51,296 nucleotides of DNA, taken from assembly GCA_902765395.1 (NCBI GenBank), contig CACWZP010000022.1:1-51296 (forward strand). The letters run 5' to 3'. Shown piece after piece: positions 1 to 30,671 of this stretch. Position 1 is the first letter of the stretch; every line of letters starts with the position of its first letter. This DNA comes from an uncultured Eubacteriales bacterium. GTDB lineage: Bacteria; Bacillota; Clostridia; Christensenellales; Aristaeellaceae. The notes beneath the pieces were generated by a model that saw only the letters and a list, made by a program, of their open reading frames with translations, did no database searches and was not told the origin of the DNA. Made by a program: the position numbers and the translations under genes.

Positions 1-1962
<1,962 letters not shown>

Positions 1963-1995: not shown

Positions 1996-2028
1996 ATGGA
2001 GGACGGGGATTCAATCCCCGTCCTCCAT
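1996..2028 (-). terminator. Perfect 15-bp hairpin at convergent gene ends
   Basis: Bases 1996-2010 and 2014-2028 are exact reverse complements, separated by a 3-nt loop that is the stop codon of the response-regulator gene. On the minus strand the stem is followed by a moderately U-rich stretch (CTTTATAAT), which suits an intrinsic terminator for the exporter operon. On the plus strand there is no T-run, so it would act there mainly as a 3'-end stabiliser for the kinase mRNA. Confidence 0.7.
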
Positions 2029-2823
2029 TGCCCAGTTGATCTCGTCCAGCTCGGCGTGCAGCGTCTCCGCCCAGCTGTACTGGTTCATGTAATCGCCCAG
2101 ATACTGGTATCTGGACGCTTTCTTTTTGGCCAGCCAGTCGTACAGGTCGCACTCGATCCTGTCCGCCGCGATGCCCATGCTGCCCCGCTGCTTGACGATG
2201 ACGCCGTTCAGCTTGAGCTTCGTCATGGTGTTCTGCAGATCCTGGCGCAGGTTGCTCAGGTAAGAGGCCTTCTTTTCCGGGTCGCCGTCGTCCTCCCACA
2301 GCGCGGCGATGATCTCGCCGTTGGTGGTCTGCGCGCCGCGGTTGTTCACCAGCAGCGCCACGATCTCCTTGGTGCGGGTGTACTTGAAGGCCACCGGCTG
2401 TCCGTCCACGAACAGCTCGAAGTTGCCGAAGGTCTGGGCAAACACCCGCTTGTCGAATTCCTGAGGCGCGGGGTGGCGCAGGTCGTCTAATTCCATCCGC
2501 AGGGCGCCCTCCTCCGCGGGACGCAGCACATAGCCGCTGGCGTGCAGCGCGAAGGCGTTCATGGCGTGATCCGCGCCGTCTGAAAGGAAGATCAGGTTCA
2601 CCTGCGGATACATGTCCTTCAGGTAACGGCCCAGGTCCAGGCCGCTCAACTCCGGCATGGCCGTCGAGAGAAACGCCGCATCGATCTCCTTCTTTCGCGC
2701 TGCGGCCAGGGCGGTCGGGCTGTCCGTGAAGGCGAGCAGTTCCGCCTTCGGGCGCAGCGCCGCGACCAGCTTCGAAAGCCTGTCCAGCGCGCCGGCGTCC
2801 CGTTCCAGCAACAGTATGGTCAC
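2011..2823 (-). CDS. SARP-like transcriptional regulator with degenerate receiver domain
   Basis: A 270-aa protein with an N-terminal receiver-like domain (about 1-115), a winged-helix Trans_reg_C-like domain (about 128-215, FGNFELFVDGQPVAF, TKEIVALL, EIIAALW) and a short C-terminal part ending in the QYSWAE signature I associate with Clostridia SARP-type response regulators. The position that normally carries the phosphorylated Asp (FLDxxMP) is Ser53 (FLSTAMP), and the usual Lys of the KP pair is Arg101, so phosphorelay control is doubtful. The start is GTG at 2823, preceded by GAAGGAGGG and overlapping the upstream stop as GTGA, which implies translational coupling. It is the last gene of the exporter operon and a natural candidate for controlling it. 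Its target is unknown; direct repeats with 11-bp spacing at 8853-8869 fit this regulator type. Confidence 0.85.
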   Translation of the reverse strand: MTILLLERDAGALDRLSKLVAALRPKAELLAFTDSPTALAAARKKEIDAAFLSTAMPELSGLDLGRYLKDMYPQVNLIFLSDGADHAMNAFALHASGYVLRPAEEGALRMELDDLRHPAPQEFDKRVFAQTFGNFELFVDGQPVAFKYTRTKEIVALLVNNRGAQTTNGEIIAALWEDDGDPEKKASYLSNLRQDLQNTMTKLKLNGVIVKQRGSMGIAADRIECDLYDWLAKKKASRYQYLGDYMNQYSWAETLHAELDEINWAMEDGD

Positions 2824-3314
2824 AGCAAGCCCTCCTTCAGGTCCACCGGCCGCACCTGCTGGTTGCGGCGCTGTTCCGGCGTCATGTGCAGCGGATCCGG
2901 CTCGCCCACCAGCAGCATGTCGCCGCCGGAGAGCATGGAATCGTGCAGCGGCCCGGCGCTCAGGTCGGAGATCACCAGCGCGGCAAAGCGGTCGTAGTTG
3001 TCCTCGTCGATGACGGGGAAGCGGTGGCCCATGCGATACCAGTGGGCCGGGTCAAAGCCCGCCTCGCCGGTGTACAGCCGGTCGGCGGTGGCCTCCACCT
3101 CGTCCGGGCCGGCCTGCTGGCCGGGAGCCAGCATGAAGTCGTCGCAGAACAGCATTGCGTAGGCGCGCAGCACCTGCGAGCGCACGGTCATTTCCCGCCC
3201 GCCGCGCTGGACGGTGGAATCCATGATGCGATAGTAGGCCTCCTGGGCGGACTCGTCCCCGTCAAAGCGGACGATCGCGTCATACAGCTCGCGATTGATG
3301 TACGGATGTGCCAT
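2820..3314 (-). CDS. Hypothetical protein of the peptide-export operon
   Basis: I do not recognise this 164-aa protein. It has no signal peptide or membrane helix, is acidic, and shows no obvious catalytic motif; the N-terminal half looks helical (INRELYDAIVRFDGDESAQEAYYRIMDST). The ATG at 3314 has a GGAGGG site 6 nt upstream. The gene lies 18 nt downstream of the second ABC exporter and overlaps the regulator gene by 4 nt, so it is co-expressed and probably translationally coupled with both. Position suggests a cytoplasmic accessory role in export, immunity or regulation; nothing in the sequence decides between these. Confidence 0.75.
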   Translation of the reverse strand: MAHPYINRELYDAIVRFDGDESAQEAYYRIMDSTVQRGGREMTVRSQVLRAYAMLFCDDFMLAPGQQAGPDEVEATADRLYTGEAGFDPAHWYRMGHRFPVIDEDNYDRFAALVISDLSAGPLHDSMLSGGDMLLVGEPDPLHMTPEQRRNQQVRPVDLKEGLL

Positions 3315-3332
3315 GTCGATCCCTCCGGTTTG

Positions 3333-5525
3333 TCAGTTCTCTCCCGCGTCCAGCCGCTGGCGGGCGACCAGGTCGGCAAACGCGCCCTTCCTCTCGATCA
3401 GCTGGTCGTAGGTGCCGTCCTCGATGATCGCGCCCTTGTCCATCACCAGGATGCGGTCGCAGTTGCGAATGGTGGACAGCCGATGGGCGATGACGACGCG
3501 GGTGCATTTCAGCCGGTCCAGCGCCTCGGACACCTGCTTCTGGGTCACGTTGTCCAGCGCGCTGGTGGCCTCGTCCAGGATCAATATGCGGGGCTTGGGG
3601 GCGATGGCCCGGGCGATCAGGAGCCGCTGCTTCTGGCCGCCGGAGATGCCGCCCTGGCCCTCGGAGATCATGGTCTGCATGCCCATGGGCATATCCCTTA
3701 TGTCGTCGGCGATGCCCGCCGTCTCGGCGGCCTCCCAGGCCGCGTCCAGCGTCAGCCACGGCGCGGACAGCGTGATGTTGGAGAAGATGTCGCCCTGCAT
3801 CAGCTGGCCGTTCTGGATGACCACGCCCATGTTACGGCGCAGGGAGCGGGGGTCGATGCCCGCCAGATCCCGGCCGTCGTACAGCACCGAGCCCCGCTGG
3901 GGCTTTTCAAACCCCAGCAGCAGCCGCACCAGCGTGGACTTGCCGCAGCCGGTGCGCCCCACGATGGCCACGTACTCCCCGGCATTGATCTTCAGCGACA
4001 GGTCGGTGAGCACGTCGGGGGTGTCCGGCGCATACCGGAAGGTGACGTGGCTCAGCTCGATGCTGCCGGACAACTGCCGAGCCTGTTCCTTGTCCGCGGT
4101 GATCTCCGGCTCGGTCTTCAGGATCGGCTCCGCCATCTCGAGGATCGGGCGTATGGACGCGGCGGAGATGGCGATGCCGGCCAGGGCCGTGAACGCGCCC
4201 ATAACCCTTCCGTAGGCGGCGGTGAAGCCGTAGTACTGGCTGGGGTCGACGCCGGAGCGCACCGACAGGTAGTACAGCGCGATGTTGCCCACCAGGGAGA
4301 TGGCCAGCGTGATGACCCTGCTCAGCTTGATGAAGGTCGGGGGATTGTACTCCAGCTCCGTGTTTTGGGCGTAGAGCCGTGCCCAGCGGGCGAAGGCGCG
4401 CTTTTCCGAGCCGGACAGCTTGATCTTCTGGATGCCGCTGACCATGGCGTAGCTCATGCCGCTCTCCTGGGCGGCCAGCTTCATCTTCCTTCGGGTGATG
4501 CCGATCTGGGCCAGGGAGACGGCCAGGCTCATGCCCACGGTGACGACGATGATGAGTATGGACGGCCACACCAACAGCGGCGCGAAGCGGAAGATCTCGC
4601 CGATATAGATCAGGGACAGCAGGCTGGTCAGCCCGATGGACATCACGCTGCTGAGCATCATGTCGCACAGCGAGCCCACGGAGTCCGCCCGGCTGGACAG
4701 CTCGCCGGAGGCGAATTGCCGGAAGAAGCTGACCGGTAGGGAGAGTATGCGCATCATCACGGAGGACTCCACCGCCAGCGATGTCTTGGTGGTGAGCCGC
4801 TCCGTCAGCAGGTCGCTGACCACGTTGATCAGCTCCGACGCCACCGCGGCGCACAGCAGGAACACCGCCATGCCGATGAGCATGGACGCGCTCTTGCTCT
4901 GGAGCACCGGCCCGGTGATGGCTTGGTAGACCCTCGGCTCGATCAGCCCCACCAGCGTCACGGCCAGCATGGACAGCACGATCAGGGCGATGTCCCCGGC
5001 GGTGACGCACTTCTTCATGTACAGCAATAGATCCGGGATGCCCAGCTTCTTCATGGGCAGGGGCTGGTAGAAGCACAGGGCCTCCGCATCCAGCCGCTTC
5101 GCCGTCTTGCGGTTCACCCGCACCCGCGCGCCGGTGGTCGGGTCGCGGAAAGTGTAGCCCTGAAGCGTCCCGGGCAGCAGGGCCACCGCCGCGCCGCTGT
5201 CCTTCAGGAAGCCCAGCATCGGCCCGTAGGCGTCCCTGTACCAGCCCTCGGTCAGCTCCACGTCCCGGGTCATCATGCCCAGGGGACGCAGCGCATACTC
5301 CAGCTGGTCGTTCACGTCCGTGATGTCCTCCGGGATTTCCACGGGCTTCTTGTGATAGTATTTCAATATCTCGTCCAGCGCCTCCCGGGCGACCAGGCGC
5401 TCATCCTTGAGGCGCGCCGCCACTCGGCTGCCCAGAACCGAGGCCGCCACCTGCTCGAAGGCGTCCTCGAAGGTTTTTTCGTCGTGCTGTATCCGCTGTC
5501 TGATCTGTTTGTCAAACCAACCCAT
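3333..5525 (-). CDS. NHLM-type ABC exporter, ATP-binding/permease, without peptidase
   Basis: A 730-aa half-transporter. An N-terminal region of about 165 residues (no C39 Cys-His pair) precedes an ABC_membrane domain with about six helices (from about 180 to 450) and an ATPase with Walker A GRTGCGKSTL, signature ISGGQKQR, Walker B ILILDEATSALD and the switch His in IAHRLS. The layout matches the non-peptidase ABC protein of NHLM bacteriocin-type secretion systems. The ATG at 5525 is preceded by AGGAGG with 8-nt spacing. It lies 17 nt downstream of the peptidase-bearing exporter, and the two probably form a heterodimer or act in sequence on the same cargo. Family assignment is from overall architecture and neighbourhood. 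Confidence 0.9.
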   Translation of the reverse strand: MGWFDKQIRQRIQHDEKTFEDAFEQVAASVLGSRVAARLKDERLVAREALDEILKYYHKKPVEIPEDITDVNDQLEYALRPLGMMTRDVELTEGWYRDAYGPMLGFLKDSGAAVALLPGTLQGYTFRDPTTGARVRVNRKTAKRLDAEALCFYQPLPMKKLGIPDLLLYMKKCVTAGDIALIVLSMLAVTLVGLIEPRVYQAITGPVLQSKSASMLIGMAVFLLCAAVASELINVVSDLLTERLTTKTSLAVESSVMMRILSLPVSFFRQFASGELSSRADSVGSLCDMMLSSVMSIGLTSLLSLIYIGEIFRFAPLLVWPSILIIVVTVGMSLAVSLAQIGITRRKMKLAAQESGMSYAMVSGIQKIKLSGSEKRAFARWARLYAQNTELEYNPPTFIKLSRVITLAISLVGNIALYYLSVRSGVDPSQYYGFTAAYGRVMGAFTALAGIAISAASIRPILEMAEPILKTEPEITADKEQARQLSGSIELSHVTFRYAPDTPDVLTDLSLKINAGEYVAIVGRTGCGKSTLVRLLLGFEKPQRGSVLYDGRDLAGIDPRSLRRNMGVVIQNGQLMQGDIFSNITLSAPWLTLDAAWEAAETAGIADDIRDMPMGMQTMISEGQGGISGGQKQRLLIARAIAPKPRILILDEATSALDNVTQKQVSEALDRLKCTRVVIAHRLSTIRNCDRILVMDKGAIIEDGTYDQLIERKGAFADLVARQRLDAGEN

Positions 5526-5542
5526 TCAAAGCGCCTCCTTTC

Positions 5543-7723
5543 TCAATCGCTGGTGACCAGTTTCGCGTAAACGCCGCCGAGGGCATACAGCTCCTCGTGA
5601 GTGCCGTGCTCCACCACCACGCCCTTGTCCAGCACGATGATCTGGTCGCAGTCGCGGATGGTGGACAGCCGGTGGGCGATGACGATGGTGGTAATGCCCC
5701 GGTCCTGGATGGCCTTTACCACGTCGTATTCCGTCTTGGCGTCCAGGGCGCTGGTGGCCTCGTCCAGTATGATGATGGACGGGTCCTGGGCCAGCACACG
5801 GGCGATCTCCATCCGCTGCCGCTGGCCGCCGGACAGGTCGCGCCCGTTCTCGTTCAGGCGATTCTGATAGCCGCCGGGGCGCTGGAGGATGTCGTCGTGG
5901 ATCTGGGCGTCCCGGGCCGCGAGGATCACCTCGAAGTCCTCGATGGAATCGTCCCACATGCGGATGTTGTTGGCAATGGTGTCCTCAAAGAGTATGATAT
6001 CCTGGTCCACCACGGCCAGGGAGCCGGTGAACACGGGGCGGGGGATGGCGGAGATGGGCTTGCCGTCAAACAGAATCTCGCCCTCCCAGGGCCTGTAAAG
6101 CCCGGAGATCAGCTTGGATAGCGTGGACTTGCCGCAGCCGCTGGCGCCCACGATGGCCACGCGCTCGCCGGAGCGGATGTTCAGGGAAAAGTCGGTGATG
6201 ACGGGCTTGCCCAGGCGGGAGTAGCCGAATGTAACGTGCTTCAATTCCACATTGCCCTTCAGCTTGGCGCAGTCCACGTCCTCGCCGACGGGATCAAAGC
6301 GCACGTTGGGATCCGATGGGTATTGCAGCACGTCCTCCACCCGCTCCATCTGGGTGCGCATCTCCTGAATGGTCTGGCTGGCGCCGATCAATGTCTGGGC
6401 CGGGCCGGTGAAGGCGCTCAAAAGGCCCTGGAACAGCGCGATGGCGCCCAGGGTGAACTTTCCCTCCATGGCCAGCCGCACGCCCGCGAACAGTACCAGG
6501 TAATTGGCGGCGGTATTGATCAGCGACGGGATCAGCCCCATCCGGGCGTTCATGCGCGCGTACTTCACCGACTGGGCGTTCACCGAAGCCTGATAGCCCG
6601 CCCACTTGCGGAAGAATCCGTTTTCCGCGCCGCTGGCCTTGATGGTCTCGGTCATGCTGATGCCGGCCAGCGTCGCCGATGCCAGCTTGCCCTCGTCCCG
6701 GGCCTGCACCCGCGTCAGGTTGATCCGGCGCATGGAGACAAATTGGGCCACCAGCAGGTTCGCGGCGATGGATATGAGGCCGATCAGGGTCATCACCAGG
6801 CTGTGCCGCAGCATCAGCACCAGATAGAACACCATCATGACGGTGTTCAACAGCAGCGGCGCGATGGTCTGCACCAGGGTGCCCGCGATGGCGGCGTTGG
6901 TGCTCTGACGCTGCAGGATGTCGCCCGCCATGCGCTGGGAGAAGAAGTCCATGGGCAGGCCCAGCACCTTCCACATGAAGGACGTGCTGCCCACCACGGC
7001 CAGCTTTCCGTTGATCTTCAGGGAATAGACCGTCCGGGCCCATTCCACGATCAACTGCACCGCGCACAAGAGCGCCATCAAACCGATGAACGGGCGAAGC
7101 CAATCCGGGTTGCGGCCGGACAGCAGCCGGTCGAAGAATACCCGGGACATGGCCGGGTTGATGACATCGAACAGATAGGATATGACGGTGGTCAGCGCCA
7201 CGAAGGCTGCCGCCGGTCCCGCGCCGCGCAGGCGCCTGCGGGCAAAGGCCAGCGTGCTCTTGCGCTTGCCGGAGGGGGAGAAGCCCTCCGCGGGGCTGAA
7301 TGTGATGACGACGCCGGTGAAGGCGCGGTCAAACTGCTCCATGGGCACCTTCACGATGCCCCGGGCCGGGTCGTTGATCACGGCCCTGCCGCCCCTGAAG
7401 CCGTCCAGCACCACGAAGTGGTCGAATTCCCAGTGGATGATGCAGGGGAAGGTGGCACTCTCCTTCAGCGCGTCCAGCTCCATGCGGTAGCCGTGCACCT
7501 CGAAGCCGTGGTGCTTCGCGGCCAGCATGATGTTTCTGGCGTTGGAGCCGTCCCGGGATACGCCGCAGTCCACGCGCACGATCTCCAGCGGCACCCACTT
7601 CTGGTACCAGGCCATCACCATGGCCAGGCAGGCCGCGCCGCACTCCAGCGCCTCCATCTGCATGACCACGGGCACCCGCGCCACGCCCCGGGTGAGGGGC
7701 TGCTTGATCTTAACAGAAGGCAA
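5543..7723 (-). CDS. Peptidase-containing ABC exporter (C39, NHLM type)
   Basis: A bifunctional exporter of about 726 aa that cleaves double-glycine leaders and exports the mature peptide. The N-terminal C39 peptidase has Cys28 (ALECGAACLAM), His102 (FDHFVVLDGF) and Asp118 (INDPARG). It is followed by six membrane helices (about 170-440) and an ATPase with Walker A GASGCGKSTL, signature LSGGQRQR and Walker B IIILDEATSALD. The start chosen is TTG at 7723, because GGGAGG lies 8 nt upstream of it; the GTG at 7732 would overlap that ribosome site. It sits 15 nt downstream of the short adaptor. The substrate is very probably the GG-leader protein at the head of the operon. Confidence 0.95.
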   Translation of the reverse strand: MPSVKIKQPLTRGVARVPVVMQMEALECGAACLAMVMAWYQKWVPLEIVRVDCGVSRDGSNARNIMLAAKHHGFEVHGYRMELDALKESATFPCIIHWEFDHFVVLDGFRGGRAVINDPARGIVKVPMEQFDRAFTGVVITFSPAEGFSPSGKRKSTLAFARRRLRGAGPAAAFVALTTVISYLFDVINPAMSRVFFDRLLSGRNPDWLRPFIGLMALLCAVQLIVEWARTVYSLKINGKLAVVGSTSFMWKVLGLPMDFFSQRMAGDILQRQSTNAAIAGTLVQTIAPLLLNTVMMVFYLVLMLRHSLVMTLIGLISIAANLLVAQFVSMRRINLTRVQARDEGKLASATLAGISMTETIKASGAENGFFRKWAGYQASVNAQSVKYARMNARMGLIPSLINTAANYLVLFAGVRLAMEGKFTLGAIALFQGLLSAFTGPAQTLIGASQTIQEMRTQMERVEDVLQYPSDPNVRFDPVGEDVDCAKLKGNVELKHVTFGYSRLGKPVITDFSLNIRSGERVAIVGASGCGKSTLSKLISGLYRPWEGEILFDGKPISAIPRPVFTGSLAVVDQDIILFEDTIANNIRMWDDSIEDFEVILAARDAQIHDDILQRPGGYQNRLNENGRDLSGGQRQRMEIARVLAQDPSIIILDEATSALDAKTEYDVVKAIQDRGITTIVIAHRLSTIRDCDQIIVLDKGVVVEHGTHEELYALGGVYAKLVTSD

Positions 7724-7738
7724 GAATGACACCTCCCG

Positions 7739-8170
7739 TCAATTCATCAGGAAGCTGATGGGGCTCAGGGTCTCGGTGACGATTTGCACGTCGTAAACGC
7801 CCGCGGGCAGCGCGTCGCCTGAATCGTCCAGCGAGGCGGTCACCTTCACGACATCGCCGTCCTGGTACGCGTAATCCACGCGTCCGCTCCGGCCGCCCGC
7901 GCGCACGATCATGCCCTCGTCAATCAGCGCGCCGTCCCCCTCGGGCAGCTCCATCACGATCACGGTGCCATCCGCGTCGAGGGTTCCCTTCGCGGACACC
8001 GTCGTCTCCACCTTCACCAGCGCCGAAGCCACCAGCAGCCCGGCCAGCAGCGCGATCACCGCCGCCAGCACCATCCAGATGCCGGGGCTGGCCACCCGCA
8101 TGTAATCCTGCAATTGCTCCGGGGACGATATGCGCTCCACGCTCTTTTTCCTGAACAGCTGGCTTTGCAT
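7739..8170 (-). CDS. Short HlyD/NHLM-type secretion adaptor
   Basis: A 143-aa membrane protein. The N-terminus (QLFRKKSVERISSPEQLQDYM, first half shown by this motif) matches the start of NHLM secretion (HlyD-type) adaptors. One membrane helix (about 33-53) follows, then a short external beta-rich part. Typical members of the family are around 400 residues and carry a lipoyl domain interrupted by a long coiled-coil hairpin; that hairpin is absent here. The reading frame ends normally, so this looks like a minimal form rather than an obvious frameshift remnant. A Gram-positive exporter needs no periplasm-spanning hairpin, which may explain the size. The start is ATG with GGAGG 7 nt upstream. 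Confidence 0.8.
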   Translation of the reverse strand: MQSQLFRKKSVERISSPEQLQDYMRVASPGIWMVLAAVIALLAGLLVASALVKVETTVSAKGTLDADGTVIVMELPEGDGALIDEGMIVRAGGRSGRVDYAYQDGDVVKVTASLDDSGDALPAGVYDVQIVTETLSPISFLMN

Positions 8171-8488
8171 CTTCCTGCCTCCGTGAACACTCTTCTCGGT
8201 TTAAACCAGCGTTTCCGTGGTCATCTTTTTTCTTCCGGGTCGCGTCAGGCTCCCTTGACTTGCCGCCGGCAAGCCTGCGGGGCTGTTCTTGCCAGAGCGA
8301 AAAACCTGCTCCGCAGCTTTCGCTGTTTAACCTGAGAATGGTGTAATTCTCTGATACGCCAACATGTGGCGAGGCTTGTGCCCCGCCACGAATTGGCATT
8401 GGGTGATTAACCTGTTTCGCTTTTTGGACGCCGCCACCGAATCGAAAGCATGGATTCGCGATCGCGCCGTGGCGGCCCTCTGATCGGC
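8171..8488 (-). other. 318-nt structured spacer between cargo gene and exporter genes
   Basis: No plausible gene is seen here. The stretch is rich in inverted repeats: gtggcg/cgccac (8366-8371 with 8384-8389) nested inside gccaa/ttggc (8358-8362 with 8393-8397); gtggcggc/gccgccac (8430-8437 with 8469-8476) enclosing cgaatc/gattcg (8438-8443 with 8453-8458); and a cttgcc-gcc-ggcaag palindrome near 8259-8273. None is followed by a U-run on the minus strand, so they look like mRNA-stabilising or processing structures that could keep cargo mRNA above exporter mRNA. No known riboswitch was recognised. Confidence 0.5.
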
Positions 8489-8782
8489 TCAGAAGCGCAC
8501 GTACTTGGCGTCCACGTAGCCGTACTTGTCCTTGGCGGGGGAGTAGGCCAGCAGATAGCCCTTCTCCAGGAAGTTCTGGTTGACCTTGATGCTGTCGCCG
8601 TCCTTGTACTTGATGGACATGAACGCGCCGCCCGCGGTCTTCTGCATTACCAGGTAGGTGCCCTTGGGGACGCTCACCTTCGCGGTGACAAAGTTCTTCA
8701 GGTCATGCACGTCATCCTTCTTCTTGCCGCCCGTGACTTCCTCCAGCTCTTCCAGGTTCAGCTCGTTGATCTCGTTGCTCAT
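8489..8782 (-). CDS. Double-glycine-leader protein with SH3-like core (exporter cargo)
   Basis: A 97-aa precursor. Residues 1-19 form a classic GG leader (ELNLEELEEVTGG), with cleavage expected after Gly19 by the C39 peptidase encoded downstream. The 78-aa mature part is lysine-rich, has no Cys, and its second half (GGAFMSIKYKDGD, GYLLAYSPAKDKYGYVDAKYVRF region) looks like a bacterial SH3 domain: short strands ending in a GYVxxKYV motif. The ATG at 8782 is chosen because GGAGGG (8790-8795) lies 7 nt upstream; the in-frame ATG at 8788 is too close. It heads the exporter operon and no lanthipeptide, radical-SAM or cyclodehydratase gene is nearby, so an unmodified secreted protein is most likely. 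Bacteriocin, cell-wall binder and signal are all possible roles. Confidence 0.88.
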   Translation of the reverse strand: MSNEINELNLEELEEVTGGKKKDDVHDLKNFVTAKVSVPKGTYLVMQKTAGGAFMSIKYKDGDSIKVNQNFLEKGYLLAYSPAKDKYGYVDAKYVRF

Positions 8783-8876: not shown

Positions 8877-8905
8877 GTGACAATTCCCAATCCTGATTAT
8901 ACTAT
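8877..8905 (+). promoter_or_regulatory. Possible distal promoter for the C11 peptidases
   Basis: GTGACA (8877-8882) and TACTAT (8900-8905) are 17 bp apart. The -35 overlaps the TCACGCGTGA palindrome, so a regulator bound there could influence both divergent promoters. It would give a leader of about 260 nt. Confidence 0.35.
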
Positions 8906-9068
8906 ATGCGGCAGCCGATTTGTCAAGGGAATCAATCCCGGCAGGCGCAGATTTCACGGGTTTGCCATCATATGGTTACGAATATGCCGCAACCAGGCGC
9001 CGTGGATGGCGGGCGGCGTGTTTTTTTCAAACACCCCTCCCGGAGGGGGTGTCAGAATCGGAGCGATG

Positions 9069-9077: not shown

Positions 9078-9175
9078 AGAAATGGATTCTATAATATGGA
9101 AGTTTGCTGCCGCCGCATGGCAGTGCGCTTCGTTCCCAAGACATGGAAGCCTGAGAGGGCGTGAAGGGGATTAAC

Positions 9176-11281
9176 ATGAGAAATATTGCCTTGACACTGA
9201 CGGCGGGGGTTCTCCTGCTGATGCTACTTTGCGGCGCGTCGGCGATGGCGGAGGGCGTCGAAGACGACCTGGACGAGTGGACGGTGATGCTCTACGTCTG
9301 CGGCTCCGACCTGGAGAGCAAGTATGCCTATGCCACCGGCAACCTGGAGGAAATGGAACTCATCAATGTCCCGGTCAACTATATGGGCATTGAAAGGGGC
9401 TTGATTGACATGTCCCAGCTCCAGGACGACAGCGGCAGGTTTGGAGAGGTCAACATCGTGATGCAGACCGGGGGCAGCAGCCAGTGGCACACCGAGGATC
9501 TGCTCATGGACATTGACCCTGGTGCCCTGCAGCGCTGGCACTTTGCACTGTATCCCTTCAGCGGGATGGGGGGAAAAAAGGGAGATGGCTTTGAGTTGGA
9601 GGAAACGCTTCCGCTTGCGAGCATGGCCGATCCCGATACGCTCTCGGATTACGTCCGCTGGGCGGCTGAGAACTATCCCGCGAAGAAGTACGCGCTGGTG
9701 CTTTGGGACCACGGGGACGGCGCGCGCAGCGGCCTTTTCATCGACGAGCTGTTTGACAAGGACGTCATGTACCTCTACGAACTGAAGCAGGCGCTTTTGG
9801 ACGGCGGAACCCATTTCGATGCCGTGATCATCGACGCCTGCCTGATGGCTAACATCGAGACGGCCTGGAACCTGAAGGACTCCGCCGACTGGATGGTGGC
9901 CTCGGAGGAGGTCGTGCCCGGCAAGGGCACCGCCATCGGCGAATGGCTGCAGGAGCTGATCTGCTACCCGGAGTGCGACGGGGAATGGCTGGGCCGCTGC
10001 GTGTGCGACACCACCAGCATCAAGTATGCCAACGAGGAGTCGGAGGAGGCCAGGTCGGTTCTCACCTGGTCGGTGGTGAACCTTTCCAGGGTGGACGCGG
10101 TGGTCAAGTCCTTTGAAAGCTTTTTCCAGACGGTGGGGGACACGCTGAGGGACAATTCTGAATCGTCCAACCTGTTTACGCGGATGATCTTCGAAGCCAA
10201 CGAGTACGGCGACGGCCAGCAGAACATGCGGGACCTTGGCAGCCTGATCTACAACCGCGACATGATGTACAGTATGGAAATGATGGAGCGAAACGCGGCG
10301 GTGAAGGCCCTCTCCGACGCGGTGGATTACTGCGTGCGCGGCGCTGGCCGCGCCGAGGCTCGTGGCCTGACATTCTGCTATCCGATGGAGTTTGACGATG
10401 AAGAGCTGGATGTCTACGCCAAGAACTTTCCCATTCCCGCGTATCTCGCCTATATCGACGCCGTTTCAACCTGGACCGCGCCGGACTGGGTGTACGACAG
10501 CGTGGAGCGCCTGCCGGAGATCGACGACATCGAGGAGTTGAAGATCCAAATCAAAAGGAAGATAAGCGAGGCCGGCATGCCCGGCGTCATGTTCCACAGC
10601 CCGGAGCCGAACCTCGACAATGTCTACTATACGCTTTACCAAAAGGACGAAGAGACGGGCGAGGTGCTGAAGCTGGGCCGCACAAACTGCGGCTTTGAAT
10701 CCACGGAAGACTTCACGGGCCAGATCTGGCGGGCGAACGATCCCATGCACTGGCCGGCCATCGACGGGCAGCTGATCTGCATGGACTTCCTGAAAGAGGT
10801 ATTCACGAAGAAACTGTACAACGTGCCGGTGCAGCTCGATTCAAAGACCTGCCTGCTGCGCTGCGGCCGCGACATCAATTACGACGACGAAGGCACTGCG
10901 AAGCAGGAATACGAGATTTACGGCCTGTGGGAGGGCTATGACGAGAACAGCACGCTGCTGAACCGCAGCGTGGAGCCGCTGTCCAAGCTGTCCGGGCGGG
11001 AGTATCGGCTGCTGTATCCCATCGACGGCACGGAAAAGAGCGGCAAGACCGATTATCAAGCCGGCGAGCCGCTGACGATGTATCGGGCACTGAACGTTGA
11101 GGAGATCCCGGTCCCCGCGGGGACATACTATCTGGAATACGAGGTCGACGATCTGTTCATGCGCAGGACCGTGCTGGAGCGCATCGAAATCCAGTGGGAT
11201 GGCCAGAACATGACCTTCCCTGGTGCGGAGCAGTGGGACGACGAGGACTGGGTGGATCTGAAGGAACTGGGCCAACCCTGA
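9176..11281 (+). CDS. Secreted clostripain-family (C11) cysteine peptidase, copy 1
   Basis: A 701-aa exported protein with a signal peptide (RNIALTLTAGVLLLMLLCG, likely cleavage after AMA near residue 25). The C11 catalytic pair is His179 (LVLWDHGDGA) and Cys222 (IIDACLMAN), with the typical N-terminal strand DEWTVMLYVCGSDLES. Known C11 enzymes cleave after basic residues. A C-terminal half of about 300 residues has no domain I recognise. The ATG at 9176 follows AAGGGGA by 5 nt; the upstream GTG at 9161 lies within the ribosome-site region and is less likely. It is followed after 27 nt by a paralogue, and diverges from the export operon, so it could act on the same surface or cargo. Confidence 0.92.
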   Translation: MRNIALTLTAGVLLLMLLCGASAMAEGVEDDLDEWTVMLYVCGSDLESKYAYATGNLEEMELINVPVNYMGIERGLIDMSQLQDDSGRFGEVNIVMQTGGSSQWHTEDLLMDIDPGALQRWHFALYPFSGMGGKKGDGFELEETLPLASMADPDTLSDYVRWAAENYPAKKYALVLWDHGDGARSGLFIDELFDKDVMYLYELKQALLDGGTHFDAVIIDACLMANIETAWNLKDSADWMVASEEVVPGKGTAIGEWLQELICYPECDGEWLGRCVCDTTSIKYANEESEEARSVLTWSVVNLSRVDAVVKSFESFFQTVGDTLRDNSESSNLFTRMIFEANEYGDGQQNMRDLGSLIYNRDMMYSMEMMERNAAVKALSDAVDYCVRGAGRAEARGLTFCYPMEFDDEELDVYAKNFPIPAYLAYIDAVSTWTAPDWVYDSVERLPEIDDIEELKIQIKRKISEAGMPGVMFHSPEPNLDNVYYTLYQKDEETGEVLKLGRTNCGFESTEDFTGQIWRANDPMHWPAIDGQLICMDFLKEVFTKKLYNVPVQLDSKTCLLRCGRDINYDDEGTAKQEYEIYGLWEGYDENSTLLNRSVEPLSKLSGREYRLLYPIDGTEKSGKTDYQAGEPLTMYRALNVEEIPVPAGTYYLEYEVDDLFMRRTVLERIEIQWDGQNMTFPGAEQWDDEDWVDLKELGQP

Positions 11282-11308: not shown

Positions 11309-13423
11309 ATGAAAAAAACGATTATGATGCTGCTGTCCGCGCTGGTGCTGCTGATCCTTTGCGGCGCGGCGGCCATCGCCGAAGCAACCGTAGGGGAAGA
11401 GGACGAGTGGACGGTGCTGTTCTACTTCTGCGGCTCAGACCTTGAGAGCAAGTACAGCTATGCATCGGACAGCCTGGCGCAGATCAACAAGACGTACTAC
11501 GCCTCCGACTTCATGGCGAATTACGTCCGTTCAGACGGCGCCAGCGTGGACAGCGGCATGCTTGAGAAAAAGGGAAAGGTCAACGTGCTCATCGAGACCG
11601 GCGGCAGCGCCCAGTGGCACGCCCAGGACGCTGGCATGGATATCGACCCGAAGGCCCTGCAGCGCTGGAGCTACGATACTATTCTGGAAGGGGAGGCCAC
11701 CGAAGATGGCATTCCCTGTGGATTCAATCTGATCGAGTCCCTGCCGCTGGCGAGCATGGCCGATCCGGAAACGCTGGCGGATTTCATCCGCTGGGGCGTC
11801 GAGACGCGGCCCGCGAAGAAGTACGCGCTGGTGCTGTGGGACCATGGCGACGGCGCGCGCTCGGGCCTGTTCATCGACGAACTGTTCGATCTGGACGTGA
11901 TGTATCTCTACGAGCTGAACCAGGCGCTGGCGGACGGCGGCGCGCACTTTGACACTATCATCATCGACGCCTGCCTGATGGCCAACCTGGAGACGGCATG
12001 GAATCTCAAGGATTACGCAGACTGGATGGTGGCCTCGGAGGAGATCGTGCCTGGCGAGGGCACCGCCGTGGGACAGTGGATGCAGCAGCTGCTTGTCTAT
12101 GCGGAGTGCGACGGTGAATTCCTGAGCCGCATGGTTTGCGATACCACCGCCGTGAAGTACGCCAACAACGCTTCCGCCGAGGGCAAGACCAATCTCACCT
12201 GGTCGGTGATCGACCTGAGCAAGGTGAATGCTCTGGTGGAAGCATTTGAGGGGGTATTCCAGGAAGTGGGCAACGCGCTCAGGAACTATCCCAGCGTGGC
12301 CAAGGTGTACGTTCGAGCGCTGTTCAACGCCAGGGGATACGGAGAGGATCTCCAGTGCATGAGAGACCTGGGGAGCTTCCTTCTCAATGAAGAGCTGTCC
12401 ATCTTCACGCGGTTCAGGCTGCGCAACGAGGCTCTGGGGGCACTGATAGAGGCGGTGGACTATTGCGTGCGCGGCCCCGGGCGCAGTGAGGCCATGGGGT
12501 TGACCTTCTGCTATCCGGTGACGGCCAGCGACGAGCAGCTGGATATCTACGCCAAAAACTTTCCAATGCCGCATTACCTGGCCTTTCTCGACAGCATTTC
12601 CGACTGGATCGCGCCGGAACAGGTGTATGCGTCTGCGGAGCGCCTGCCGAGCCTCTACGGCATCGACGATTTCGATATCCTGGTGCGCAGGACGTACTGT
12701 TCGGACGGCATGCCGGCAATCGAGGTCGACCTGGACACGAACGATAACATGGACAATGTCTACTATTGCCTGTATCGCCTGGACGAGGAGACGAATGAGA
12801 TCGTGCGCCTGGGCCGCACGGACTGTGGTTACGAGGTGCGCCGCGACGGGGACAAAACCGAGCTGATCCGGCGCGCGGGAGACCCCATGCATTGGCCGTC
12901 CATCGACGGTGAATTGATCTGCATGGATCTGGTGCAGACAGATTACATCAACAAGCTGTACAACGTTCCCGTGATGATCGATTCCCAGCTGTGCATGCTG
13001 CGCTGCGGCCGATATTTGGATGGTTTCCAGGGGAACGGCGATGTGGGGAGCAACGACTACGAGGTTTATGGCCTTTGGGTGGGCTATGAGGAGAACAGCG
13101 CGCTGCTGAACCGCAGCGTGAGGCCGCTGTCCGCGCTGACCGGACAGGAGTACCAGCTGCTCTATCCCATCTACGGCGGCGCGGACTACCAATTCAGCAA
13201 GGCGCTGTCGATGTATCGCAGCCTGGACGTGCAGGAGATCCCGCTGCCCCCGGGCACCTACTACCTGCAATACGAGATCGACGACGTGTTCCTGCGCCAA
13301 ACCTTTGCCGAAATGATCGAAATCCACTGGGACGGCGAGAAGATGACCTTCCGGGAGGATATGGAATGGGAGGACGGCGACTGGGTCAGTCTCCGGGAAG
13401 CGAGCGCGCCATTTGAACCCTGA
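11309..13423 (+). CDS. Secreted clostripain-family (C11) cysteine peptidase, copy 2
   Basis: A 704-aa tandem paralogue of the preceding gene along its whole length, including the C-terminal half. It has a signal peptide (KKTIMMLLSALVLLILCGAA), His179 (VLWDHGDGA) and Cys222 (IIDACLMAN) at exactly the same residue numbers as copy 1, and the DEWTVLFYFCGSDLES strand. GAGGGG precedes the ATG at good spacing. The 27-nt gap implies a two-gene operon made by tandem duplication. Divergence is spread across the gene, so the duplication is not recent and the two copies may have different cleavage preferences. Confidence 0.92.
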   Translation: MKKTIMMLLSALVLLILCGAAAIAEATVGEEDEWTVLFYFCGSDLESKYSYASDSLAQINKTYYASDFMANYVRSDGASVDSGMLEKKGKVNVLIETGGSAQWHAQDAGMDIDPKALQRWSYDTILEGEATEDGIPCGFNLIESLPLASMADPETLADFIRWGVETRPAKKYALVLWDHGDGARSGLFIDELFDLDVMYLYELNQALADGGAHFDTIIIDACLMANLETAWNLKDYADWMVASEEIVPGEGTAVGQWMQQLLVYAECDGEFLSRMVCDTTAVKYANNASAEGKTNLTWSVIDLSKVNALVEAFEGVFQEVGNALRNYPSVAKVYVRALFNARGYGEDLQCMRDLGSFLLNEELSIFTRFRLRNEALGALIEAVDYCVRGPGRSEAMGLTFCYPVTASDEQLDIYAKNFPMPHYLAFLDSISDWIAPEQVYASAERLPSLYGIDDFDILVRRTYCSDGMPAIEVDLDTNDNMDNVYYCLYRLDEETNEIVRLGRTDCGYEVRRDGDKTELIRRAGDPMHWPSIDGELICMDLVQTDYINKLYNVPVMIDSQLCMLRCGRYLDGFQGNGDVGSNDYEVYGLWVGYEENSALLNRSVRPLSALTGQEYQLLYPIYGGADYQFSKALSMYRSLDVQEIPLPPGTYYLQYEIDDVFLRQTFAEMIEIHWDGEKMTFREDMEWEDGDWVSLREASAPFEP

Positions 13424-21328: not shown

Positions 21329-21363
21329 ACCAATTGAGCATCGCGATTAAGGAGGAGATCAAC

Positions 21364-22521
21364 ATGATGAAACGCATTCTGGCTCTGGCGCTGTGCCTGG
21401 CGCTGCTGGGCGGCTTTGCCGCGCTGGCGGAGGACGTGACCCTGTCGAGAGACGCTTCGGACTTCGTGCTTCTGAGCGAGGCCGTGCCGGACGCGATCCT
21501 GGAGATCCGCTACTATTCCACCTACAACTTCGTGGGCGACCGCATCGACGGCTACGAGGAGCCGCTGGCCTTCCTGACGAAGGAGGCCGCACAGGCGCTG
21601 CGCGAAGTGAGCGACGACGTGGTCAGCCAGGGCTACCGGCTGAAAATCTACGACGCCTACCGCCCCCAGATGGCCGTGACCAACTTCATGAACTGGGCGC
21701 TTGACATGGACGACGTGCGCATGAAAGAATACTTCTATCCGGAGCTTGACAAGGACGTGCTGTTCCCCCAGGGCTACATCGCCGAGCACTCCGGCCACAG
21801 CCGGGGCAGCACCGTGGACCTGACGCTGTTTGACATGACCACCGAGAAGGAGGTGGACATGGGCGGCACCTTTGACTACTTCGGCGAACTGTCCCACCCG
21901 GACTTCACCGGCATCACCGAGGAGCAGTACGCCAACCGCATGATCCTGCGCGAGGCCATGCTTGCCCACGGCTTCAAGCCCCTGGCGGAGGAGTGGTGGC
22001 ACTTCACACTGGCGGACGAGCCCTTCCCGGACACCTACTTCACCTTCCCGGTGAACAGCGATTCCGTGGCGGATGAGGGCTTCCAGTCGTCCGAGCCCGG
22101 CGAGGCCCCCACGATCGACGAGTTTGTGGAAGGCTATTTTGCCCCGCTGGCGATCGTGGAGGAGGGCACTGCGGGCGCCTCCCTGAAGGCCGCCCAAGCT
22201 GCCGCCGACGTGTGCGCCTTCGCCATGGGCCACGGCATGTGGGACGTGGAAGAAAACATGCAGACCATGCGTGACAACATGCTCGCGGCCTTCGAGTCCC
22301 TGGACGCGGATACCCAGGCGCGCGCGCTGGAGGGCTTCAACGCCGTGCGCGCGCTGCTGGACGACTGCCTGGAGGACTACGAAGCCAACCGGGCCGTGTT
22401 CGAGGACGCCGGCGTGGCCGAGACCATGGATGAGGTGATGTATGACCCGCTGAACCGGCTGGCTTGGGAAAACCTGCGGGATCACACCCTGACCATGGGC
22501 AACGACGAGAACGTGGGCTGA
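21364..22521 (+). CDS. Secreted VanX-like D-Ala-D-Ala dipeptidase (M15D) with C-terminal extension
   Basis: 385 aa. A signal peptide (KRILALALCLALLGGFAALA) precedes an M15D domain (about 25-230) with Arg100 (DAYRP), zinc ligands His145 and Asp152 (SGHSRGSTVD), Glu210 as catalytic base and His213 as third ligand (EEWWHF). These match VanX-type dipeptidases, which hydrolyse D-Ala-D-Ala. VanX itself is cytoplasmic; an exported form would act on free dipeptides or wall fragments. The last 140 residues are helical and unrecognised. The start at 21364 is 6 nt after AAGGAGGAG; the upstream ATG at 21334 would precede that site. A paralogue without a signal peptide lies at 30.0 kb. Confidence 0.9.
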   Translation: MMKRILALALCLALLGGFAALAEDVTLSRDASDFVLLSEAVPDAILEIRYYSTYNFVGDRIDGYEEPLAFLTKEAAQALREVSDDVVSQGYRLKIYDAYRPQMAVTNFMNWALDMDDVRMKEYFYPELDKDVLFPQGYIAEHSGHSRGSTVDLTLFDMTTEKEVDMGGTFDYFGELSHPDFTGITEEQYANRMILREAMLAHGFKPLAEEWWHFTLADEPFPDTYFTFPVNSDSVADEGFQSSEPGEAPTIDEFVEGYFAPLAIVEEGTAGASLKAAQAAADVCAFAMGHGMWDVEENMQTMRDNMLAAFESLDADTQARALEGFNAVRALLDDCLEDYEANRAVFEDAGVAETMDEVMYDPLNRLAWENLRDHTLTMGNDENVG

Positions 22522-30017: not shown

Positions 30018-30671
30018 ATGGATTACAAGCGCAGCGTGACGATGGATTCCTCCGGCTTTGTGCTGCTGGCGGATTTCGTGCCCGGCATCGTGCAGGAGAT
30101 CCGGTACTACTCCACCTATAACTTCATCGGCGACCGCGTGGACGGCTACGAGCAGCCCGTGGCGCTGCTTCGGGTGGAGGCAGCCAGGGCGCTGAAGGCC
30201 GTGGCGGGGGAGGTGAACGCCCAGGGGTATCGCCTGAAGGTGTTTGACGCCTATCGGCCCGCCTGCGCGGTGAAGCACTTTGTGCTGTGGGGCATCGAGG
30301 ACCTGGACCTGCGCATGAAGCCCTATTTCTATCCTGACCTTGAGAAGCAGGAGCTGTTCAAGCAGGGCTACATCGCCAGCCAGTCCTCCCACAGCCGGGG
30401 CAGCGCCGTGGACCTGACGCTGCTGGACATGCGCACGGGCAGGGAGGTGGACATGGGCAGCCCCTTCGACCTGTTCAGCGAGGTTTCCCACCCGGATTCG
30501 CGGGCCGTGATCAATGAGCAGTATGAAAACCGGATGTTCCTGCAGCGCGCCATGACCCGCAACGGCTTCAAGCCCATCGACTGCGAATGGTGGCACTTCT
30601 CCCTGCAGGACGAGCCCTGTCCGGACATTTACTTTGAATTCCCGGTTTCCCAGCAGTATTTGAAAAGATAG
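30018..30671 (+). CDS. Cytoplasmic VanX-like D-Ala-D-Ala dipeptidase
   Basis: 217 aa without signal peptide, the usual length for VanX/DdpX. It keeps DAYRP, zinc ligands His125 and Asp132 (SSHSRGSAVD), catalytic Glu190 and His193 (CEWWHF). There are no vanH, vanA or vanRS genes nearby, so this looks like dipeptide catabolism (as proposed for E. coli DdpX) rather than vancomycin resistance. AAAGGA lies upstream of the ATG. It ends 12 nt before cstA, a peptide/pyruvate carrier gene, which supports use of D-Ala-D-Ala as a nutrient. Confidence 0.9.
   Translation: MDYKRSVTMDSSGFVLLADFVPGIVQEIRYYSTYNFIGDRVDGYEQPVALLRVEAARALKAVAGEVNAQGYRLKVFDAYRPACAVKHFVLWGIEDLDLRMKPYFYPDLEKQELFKQGYIASQSSHSRGSAVDLTLLDMRTGREVDMGSPFDLFSEVSHPDSRAVINEQYENRMFLQRAMTRNGFKPIDCEWWHFSLQDEPCPDIYFEFPVSQQYLKR

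What the first reader, a model, noticed from the sequence alone, without database searches (positions are those of the whole stretch)
2011..8782. NHLM-type export locus dedicated to a small SH3-fold protein, with no modifying enzyme
Seen: a GG-leader precursor whose 78-residue core looks like a bacterial SH3 domain, followed on one strand by a mini-HlyD adaptor, a C39-peptidase exporter, a second NHLM-type ABC protein, an unknown 164-aa protein and a SARP-like regulator. Known: NHLM loci usually export modified peptides and carry a LanM, radical-SAM or cyclodehydratase gene. None is present here. Inference: this is a leader-directed secretion route for an unmodified wall-binding or signalling domain, possibly an undescribed class.
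Basis: partly seen in the sequence, partly recalled or inferred. Interest (0 to 1): 0.75.

Follow-up and report, generated by a model that had tools for sequence, protein, structure and literature searches.

The report
Exporter dedicated to lone SH3 domains
A gut bacterium appears to use a peptide-antibiotic-type export machine not for a modified peptide but for a small folded SH3 domain of the kind found in cell-wall proteins, and its relatives carry several such leader-tagged domains per genome, which points to a secretion habit for which I found no description.

Summary
Six minus-strand genes (2011-8782) encode a 97-aa precursor (19-residue GG leader, 78-residue core), a 143-aa mini-adaptor, an NHLM ABC1 with C39 peptidase, an NHLM ABC2, a 164-aa orphan and a receiver-like regulator. 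AlphaFold2 folds residues 31-97 confidently and its solved matches are SH3 domains, bacterial ones first. The core has no cysteine; P0003 is the only C39 peptidase found in the genome.

The set recurs in four sister species. In the genus, 55 further leader-plus-SH3_3 precursors lie in 16 of 28 genomes. GG-SH3 of either type is in 16 of 18 genomes with ABC2 and 3 of 10 without: p 0.003, but p 0.09 in the 14 best assemblies, uncorrected for phylogeny. Outside the genus, a genome titled Lachnospiraceae has an SH3-like GG precursor directly before the same trio, and another genus of the window's family has GG-leader LysM precursors.

Best reading: leader-directed NHLM export of unmodified, probably wall-binding, single domains. 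Export, cleavage and binding are inferred. The 164-aa protein is unexplained. New variant of a known kind.

The parts
8489..8782 (-). P0001, precursor: 19-aa GG leader (8726-8782) and 78-aa SH3-like core (8492-8725), no Cys
   Evidence: leader has V-4, L-7, L-12; AF2 about 96 pLDDT for residues 31-97; SH3 matches
7739..8170 (-). P0002, 143-aa mini-HlyD adaptor with one hydrophobic helix (judged by eye)
   Evidence: TIGR03794 positions 1-76 only, below cut-off; adaptors of 115-164 aa stand before ABC1 in most relatives, four are 199-300 aa
5543..7732 (-). P0003, NHLM ABC1: C39 peptidase + permease + ATPase; likely true start TTG at 7723; only C39 found in the genome
3333..5525 (-). P0004, NHLM ABC2: permease + ATPase without peptidase
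   Evidence: 729.7 bits, cut-off 709.4
2820..3314 (-). P0005, conserved 164-aa protein, no family; overlaps P0006 by 4 bases; function unknown
   Evidence: AF2 model poor, pLDDT 57.8
2011..2823 (-). P0006, receiver-like plus winged-helix/SARP-like regulator with degenerate phospho-site
8346..8400 (-). intercistronic hairpin between precursor and adaptor, its inner stem kept in 5 of 5 loci
   Evidence: fold of 8330-8400 -36.9 kcal/mol, z -7.96
8899..8926 (-). sigma-70-like promoter TTGACA-16-TAGTAT before the precursor
   Evidence: consensus scan only
1996..2028 (-). terminator-like hairpin (15-bp stem) after P0006
   Evidence: consensus scan only; the number of terminator-like sites is no more than in shuffles

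Best explanation
The locus exports a free, unmodified SH3 domain by an NHLM-type route. The acidic leader is held by the C39 domain of P0003 through Leu-12, Leu-7 and Val-4, cut after Gly19, and the 78-residue cationic core (8.8 kDa, calculated pI 9.6) leaves through the P0003/P0004 ABC pair with the mini-adaptor P0002. Outside it folds to a bacterial SH3 domain and most likely attaches to wall polymer (peptidoglycan or teichoic acid) of the producer or its neighbours. P0006, a regulator with a non-canonical receiver, and P0005 form an accessory or control module. Shown by computation: gene set, leader code, sole C39, predicted fold, recurrence, adjacency to the exporter in several species. 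Inferred: cleavage, export, folding outside, wall binding, regulation.
For: ABC1 and ABC2 pass curated cut-offs. The own genome and each of the other four set-bearing genomes have one C39 match, the NHLM ABC1. Leader residues -4, -7 and -12 are hydrophobic in 36 of 36 leaders examined (-4 was imposed by my pattern), matching the PCAT1 code in passages of PMC6959990. Core predicted as SH3. Relatives carry the same domain in 2-5 tandem copies behind a Sec-like signal, i.e. as an extracellular domain. 53 leader+SH3_3 precursors in 14 of 28 genus genomes, separated by a score gap from leaderless SH3, plus two more in two genomes. GG-SH3 in 16 of 18 genomes with ABC2, 3 of 10 without, Fisher p 0.003. 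GG-SH3 stands next to the adaptor in G000, G018, G013, G026, G014, G011, G006 and outside the genus in G815. No Cys in the core; no RiPP enzyme among 33 scanned window ORFs.
Against: No export, cleavage or binding data exist. P0001-type and SH3_3-type cores are not shown homologous by profile comparison (hhalign probability 0.35); Foldseek E-values are weak (best 9.9e-3). The co-occurrence test ignores shared ancestry and assembly gaps; in the 14 genomes at least 90% complete and at most 5% contaminated it is 10 of 11 against 1 of 3, p 0.09. Three genomes (G025 with six genes, G015, G023) have GG-SH3 and no ABC2 at E 1e-180; whether they hold another C39 exporter was not searched. G020 and G021 have ABC2 and no GG-SH3. 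Beyond the genus the SH3_3-type precursors were not found: 3 of 396 order genomes, all of this genus, and 0 of 391 class genomes, where the tool warns that an empty answer shows nothing. No whole-genome search for LanM, YcaO or ATP-grasp enzymes was made. P0005 is unexplained.
Confidence: 0.7

Rival explanations
1. The core is a class-II-like bacteriocin that kills relatives, with P0005 as immunity protein.
For: GG leader, C39 exporter and a neighbouring orphan gene are the usual bacteriocin layout; weak, below-cut-off matches of the leader to bacteriocin families. A conserved hairpin separates precursor from exporter genes, as recalled for bacteriocin operons. P0005 lies near a GG-SH3 gene in 7 genomes.
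Against: In the stretches held, most GG-SH3 genes have no P0005 homologue beside them, though many stretches were only about 3 kb and P0005 was not searched in every genus genome. The core is a conserved domain predicted to fold (82-94% identity to the three non-identical orthologues), not a short hypervariable peptide. Up to seven paralogues per genome.
Confidence: 0.17
2. The core is modified after translation by an enzyme encoded elsewhere, so this is an ordinary RiPP with an odd core.
For: NHLP precursors can be distant from modification and export genes (PMC2887384, passages). The genome holds three SPASM radical-SAM matches. LanM, YcaO and ATP-grasp were not searched genome-wide.
Against: No Cys in the core; the homologous domain is used in Sec-type proteins; no RiPP enzyme among 33 window ORFs. 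The strongest SPASM match has like-scoring counterparts in three of the other four genomes on contigs other than the locus, as a housekeeping protein would.
Confidence: 0.08
3. The SH3 domain works as a diffusible signal or as a ligand for host or neighbour surface proteins rather than for wall polymer.
For: A regulator lies in the same operon; SH3 folds also bind peptides (recalled); another GG-leader protein product, MAM of Faecalibacterium, is studied for effects on the host (passages of PMC8836110).
Against: P0006 lacks the phospho-acceptor Asp. High-ranking solved folds include wall-hydrolase and teichoic-acid-binding SH3-like domains, though a shared fold shows no function.
Confidence: 0.15
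4. The leader-like start is incidental and the protein stays in the cell.
For: No experiment shows export.
Against: 36 of 36 leaders keep the PCAT code; 53 matches keep leader plus SH3; adjacency to the adaptor in 8 genomes, one of them outside the genus.
Confidence: 0.03

Closest known systems
NHLM / NHLP-Nif11 export systems (TIGR03794, TIGR03796, TIGR03797; Haft, Basu and Mitchell 2010, PMC2887384, passages read)
   Same: ABC1 with C39 and ABC2 pass the curated cut-offs; GG-leader cargo; a HlyD-like protein precedes ABC1.
   Different: P0001 matches neither the NHLP nor the Nif11 leader model; its leader is 19 residues (21-28 in the 28 aligned paralogues), against average GG positions of 83 and 70 in that paper; the adaptor is about a third of the 421-position model and matches 76 positions; the core is predicted to be a folded SH3 domain; no modification gene seen.
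Peptidase-containing ABC transporters and GG peptides, e.g. PCAT1 with CtA (PMC6959990, passages read)
   Same: Leader code Leu-12, Leu-7, residue -4, GG; C39-ABC exporter. The SH3 core (about 10,900 cubic A at the same density) would fit the reported 15,000 cubic A cavity.
   Different: CtA cargo is described as unstructured; here the cargo is a domain predicted to fold, and a second ABC and an adaptor are present.
MAM of Faecalibacterium prausnitzii (PMC8836110, passages read)
   Same: A GG-leader product (GG at 20-21) that in some strains lies near a PCAT gene and a HlyD-type adaptor, in others far from the PCAT.
   Different: Not described as an SH3 domain in the passages read; sequence relation not tested here.
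Bacterial SH3 (SH3b / SH3_3) cell-wall domains of hydrolases and S-layer proteins
   Same: Predicted fold; matches include C. perfringens SH3 domains 2krs and 2kt8, endolysin 4krt, NlpC proteins, and SlpA domains titled teichoic-acid-binding (8alu) or LTA-binding (7qeh).
   Different: Those are parts of larger proteins; here the domain is alone and carries a GG leader.

Membership tests
NHLM export system | C39-peptidase ABC transporter, TIGR03796 over cut-off | tested here: met
   P0003 887.1 bits, cut-off 853.3
NHLM export system | second ABC protein, TIGR03797 over cut-off | tested here: met
   P0004 729.7 bits, cut-off 709.4
NHLM export system | HlyD-like adaptor, TIGR03794 over cut-off | tested here: not met
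   P0002 36.2 bits, cut-off 156.2, positions 1-76 of 421. Short adaptors stand before ABC1 in most fetched relatives, so I call the locus NHLM-type rather than a full member.
NHLP / Nif11-leader precursor (TIGR03793, TIGR03798) | long NHase- or Nif11-related leader | tested here: not met
   no match to either model for P0001 at E 1
PCAT-exported GG protein | hydrophobic -4, -7, -12 and GG at -2, -1 | tested here: met
PCAT-exported GG protein | cleavage after GG and export | not testable with these tools
   needs experiment
RiPP | post-translational modification enzyme acting on the core | tested here: inconclusive
   none among 33 scanned window ORFs; SPASM matches elsewhere; other enzyme classes not searched genome-wide
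Bacterial SH3 domain | SH3 fold | tested here: met
Bacterial SH3 domain (Pfam models) | Pfam SH3 model over its gathering score | tested here: not met
   no SH3 family for P0001 at E 1; tandem relatives only below cut-off; sister precursors L039:9315-9599, L039:10020-10340 and L041:9429-9746 pass SH3_3
Class II bacteriocin | antibacterial activity with an immunity gene | not testable with these tools
   activity needs an assay; P0005's role is open

The most novel reading that the evidence does not exclude
In some gut Clostridia the NHLM-type exporter has become a general secretion route for single, unmodified cell-wall-binding domains: SH3 in the window's genus and in genomes titled Lachnospiraceae, LysM in another genus of the window's family (L083). 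Cells release a set of up to seven paralogous leader-tagged domains that coat their own or neighbours' walls as decoys, protectants or adhesive tags. The same domain can switch between Sec export as tandem repeats and NHLM export as a monomer: the P0001-type domain is GG-tagged in 5 and Sec-borne in 7 of 28 genus genomes, never both (Sec signals judged by eye).
Probability: 0.35. Interest if true: 0.8.

Novelty: new variant of a known kind. Interest (0 to 1): 0.62.

Why it matters
NHLM and PCAT systems are mostly read as RiPP or bacteriocin machines, and genome mining looks beside them for short peptides and modification enzymes. If the same machine exports folded wall-binding domains, some 'orphan' exporters in gut genomes may have unrecognised protein cargo. 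It also makes a clear test possible of whether a GG-leader exporter can move a domain that folds, and of what free SH3 domains do to bacterial walls.

Tried and rejected
Charge switch: are GG-type domains more cationic than Sec-type ones? SH3_3 type: median +7 (n 28) against +6 (n 15 own-genome domains), p 0.15; P0001 type: 7 against 45, p 0.06, and the three Lachnospiraceae ones are negative. Rejected as a distinguishing feature.

Co-occurrence: my first table (16 of 18 against 1 of 10, p 7e-5) left out two borderline matches, G015:C35 and G023:C35. On reading them both are GG-leader SH3 proteins, identical in the shared part, in genomes without an ABC2 hit. The table is now 16 of 18 against 3 of 10, p 0.003; in the 14 best assemblies p 0.09.

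Homology of P0001-type and SH3_3-type cores by profile: not shown. PDB sequence searches with P0001, A1 and P0005 gave nothing usable. P0005 against L083's 164-aa protein: no similarity. P0005 structure: pLDDT 57.8 from five near-identical sequences, not used for a fold search. dN/dS of the core: 0 to about 0.8 over ten pairs, too few sites to conclude. Rfam: nothing at gathering score in the window. PADLOC and PHROGs: nothing for P0001, P0002, P0005. Plasmids: no match to P0001. P0005 in 396 order genomes: 5, of which one (G203) is weak and probably chance. Clostripain genes next door are not seen beside the locus in L039 or L040 (by gene sizes).
Full report
Observation. Six minus-strand genes lie at 2011-8782 as described. 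Gaps from P0002 to P0005 are 6-18 bases, P0005 and P0006 overlap by 4, and 318 bases separate the precursor from P0002. P0003 passes TIGR03796 and P0004 TIGR03797; P0002 is a 143-aa protein that matches only the first 76 of 421 positions of TIGR03794. A sigma-70-like promoter lies before the precursor and a 15-bp terminator-like hairpin after P0006 (consensus only). Between precursor and adaptor stands a hairpin (GTGGCGGGGC-N4-GCCTCGCCAC) present in all five loci of this type; among the 248 loci then held, 24 have an exact hit, all overlapping copies of those five places. It folds at -36.9 kcal/mol, z -7.96. The window copy has about 140 more bases after the hairpin than its nearest sister.

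The wider class. G013 has two more GG-leader proteins flanking its P0001 orthologue and G014 one; all three pass Pfam SH3_3. A profile of 28 such precursors (A4; all 28 match SH3_3 at E 0.001) finds in the 28 genus genomes 53 matches that include the leader (93.9 bits or more, starting at model position 7 or before; one has a stop inside the match) in 14 genomes, up to seven per genome; the next match is 84.9 bits and starts at position 22 (the list is cut below about 55 bits). 28 of the 53 built the profile; of the other 25 I read 17, all with a GG leader; eight were not read. Two weaker matches, in G015 and G023 (about 63 bits, from position 9), also prove to be GG-leader SH3 proteins, making 55 in 16 genomes. 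In the order sample hits with the leader are confined to this genus (3 of 396); class sample 0 of 391 (which the tool says shows nothing by itself).

Link to the exporter. TIGR03797 at E 1e-180 or better is in 18 of 28 genus genomes (16 over cut-off). GG-SH3 of either type is in 19. Overlap 16; G025, G015 and G023 have GG-SH3 only; G020 and G021 the exporter only; 7 have neither. Fisher p 0.003; restricted to the 14 genomes at least 90% complete and at most 5% contaminated, 10 of 11 against 1 of 3, p 0.09. Neither is corrected for relatedness. So the statistical link is suggestive; adjacency carries more weight. GG-SH3 stands beside the mini-adaptor in the five P0001 loci, in G011 (L249) and in G006 (L177, contig ends after the adaptor). 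Outside the genus, the genome of L101 (G815, not among the 28) has one C39 match; its locus L263 runs GG-precursor, adaptor 46%, ABC1 73%, ABC2 65%. That precursor is SH3-like by my profiles at E 1e-5 but only 19.6 bits on Pfam SH3_3, below 27. The genomes of L102 and L105 also hold a single C39, in a locus with ABC1 and adaptor. In the own genome and the four sisters the C39 is single too, so P0003 is the only known candidate for leader cleavage. All 36 leaders examined keep V/I at -4, L/M at -7, L/V/I at -12 (-4 imposed by selection), the code described for PCAT1 (PMC6959990, passages).

Modification. The core has no Cys. Among 33 window ORF translations no RiPP enzyme was found; not every window ORF was scanned. 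Three SPASM matches lie on contigs C4, C12 and C6. Other enzyme classes were not searched in the whole genome.

P0005 and P0006. The pair occurs in 8 genus genomes among the loci held: the five, plus G001 (next to adaptor and ABCs), G011 (divergent from GG-SH3, adaptor and ABCs) and G019 (divergent from a GG-SH3, ABCs on another contig). P0006 and its seven homologues have S, A or E at the phospho-acceptor site, while a paralogue in L085 keeps D (site by recalled motif). P0005 has no family and no trustworthy model. I read the pair as a control or accessory module; this is inference.

Other cargo. NHLM ABC1 is in 24 of 396 order genomes at E 1e-200. GG-leader ORFs near it include two LysM proteins in L083 (43.1 and 40.5 bits, cut-off 20.9), zinc-ribbon-like and Cys-rich cores (L084, L076, L095) and others. 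So this exporter family seems to carry several kinds of small protein cargo here; several loci had no recognisable GG ORF nearby by my pattern, which also misses some (it missed the LysM pair).

Literature. Nine full-text searches listed no paper whose title or abstract start describes GG-leader SH3 domains exported by NHLM or PCAT systems; listings were partial in four of them and subscription journals are largely outside the library. Passages read: PMC2887384, PMC8836110, PMC6959990, PMC3482391, PMC3140520, PMC12648078; term search without hits in PMC13289728. PMC3482391 suggests that SH3 domains anchor certain secreted toxins to the producer's wall, which fits a wall role.

Verdict. A real, recurrent system; the export reading is well supported, the wall-binding role plausible, the biological purpose open.

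Noticed in passing
L083:4636-4863 and 5022-5249 (-), with 5806-6318 (-): Two GG-leader single LysM proteins downstream of an NHLM ABC pair, with an ECF sigma factor and an unknown 164-aa protein between.
   Followed up: partly
L095, several ORFs between 11868 and 16925 (-): A family of GG-leader cores built of about three repeats of a C-x-C ... GGG-like motif beside an NHLM pair; no idea what they are.
   Followed up: no
L084:2967-5313 (-), L174:2086-2271 (+), L105:14710-15039 (+): GG-leader proteins with zinc-ribbon-like CxxC pairs as cores, several in L084; an ECF sigma factor follows ABC2 in L084.
   Followed up: partly
G015:C35 (L261) and G023:C35 (L262): Identical GG-leader SH3 proteins in two genus genomes without an ABC2 hit; which exporter would serve them is unknown.
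   Followed up: partly
window 9161-11281 and 11309-13423 (+): Two tandem clostripain-family (C11) peptidase genes, divergent from the locus.
   Followed up: partly
window 184-1962 (+): Hybrid histidine kinase with receiver domains, convergent with P0006; conservation beside the locus not tested.
   Followed up: no
window 21334-22521 and 30018-30671 (+): Two D-Ala-D-Ala dipeptidase (M15) genes about 8 kb apart.
   Followed up: no
L106:8845-10233 (+), L103, L108, L112, L113: Secreted-looking proteins of Blautia and Lachnospiraceae built of 3-5 tandem copies of the P0001-type domain and little else.
   Followed up: partly
L182 and L184 (G010:C47, G016:C2): SH3-containing frames of 245 aa matched the GG-SH3 query without its leader; not read further.
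   Followed up: no
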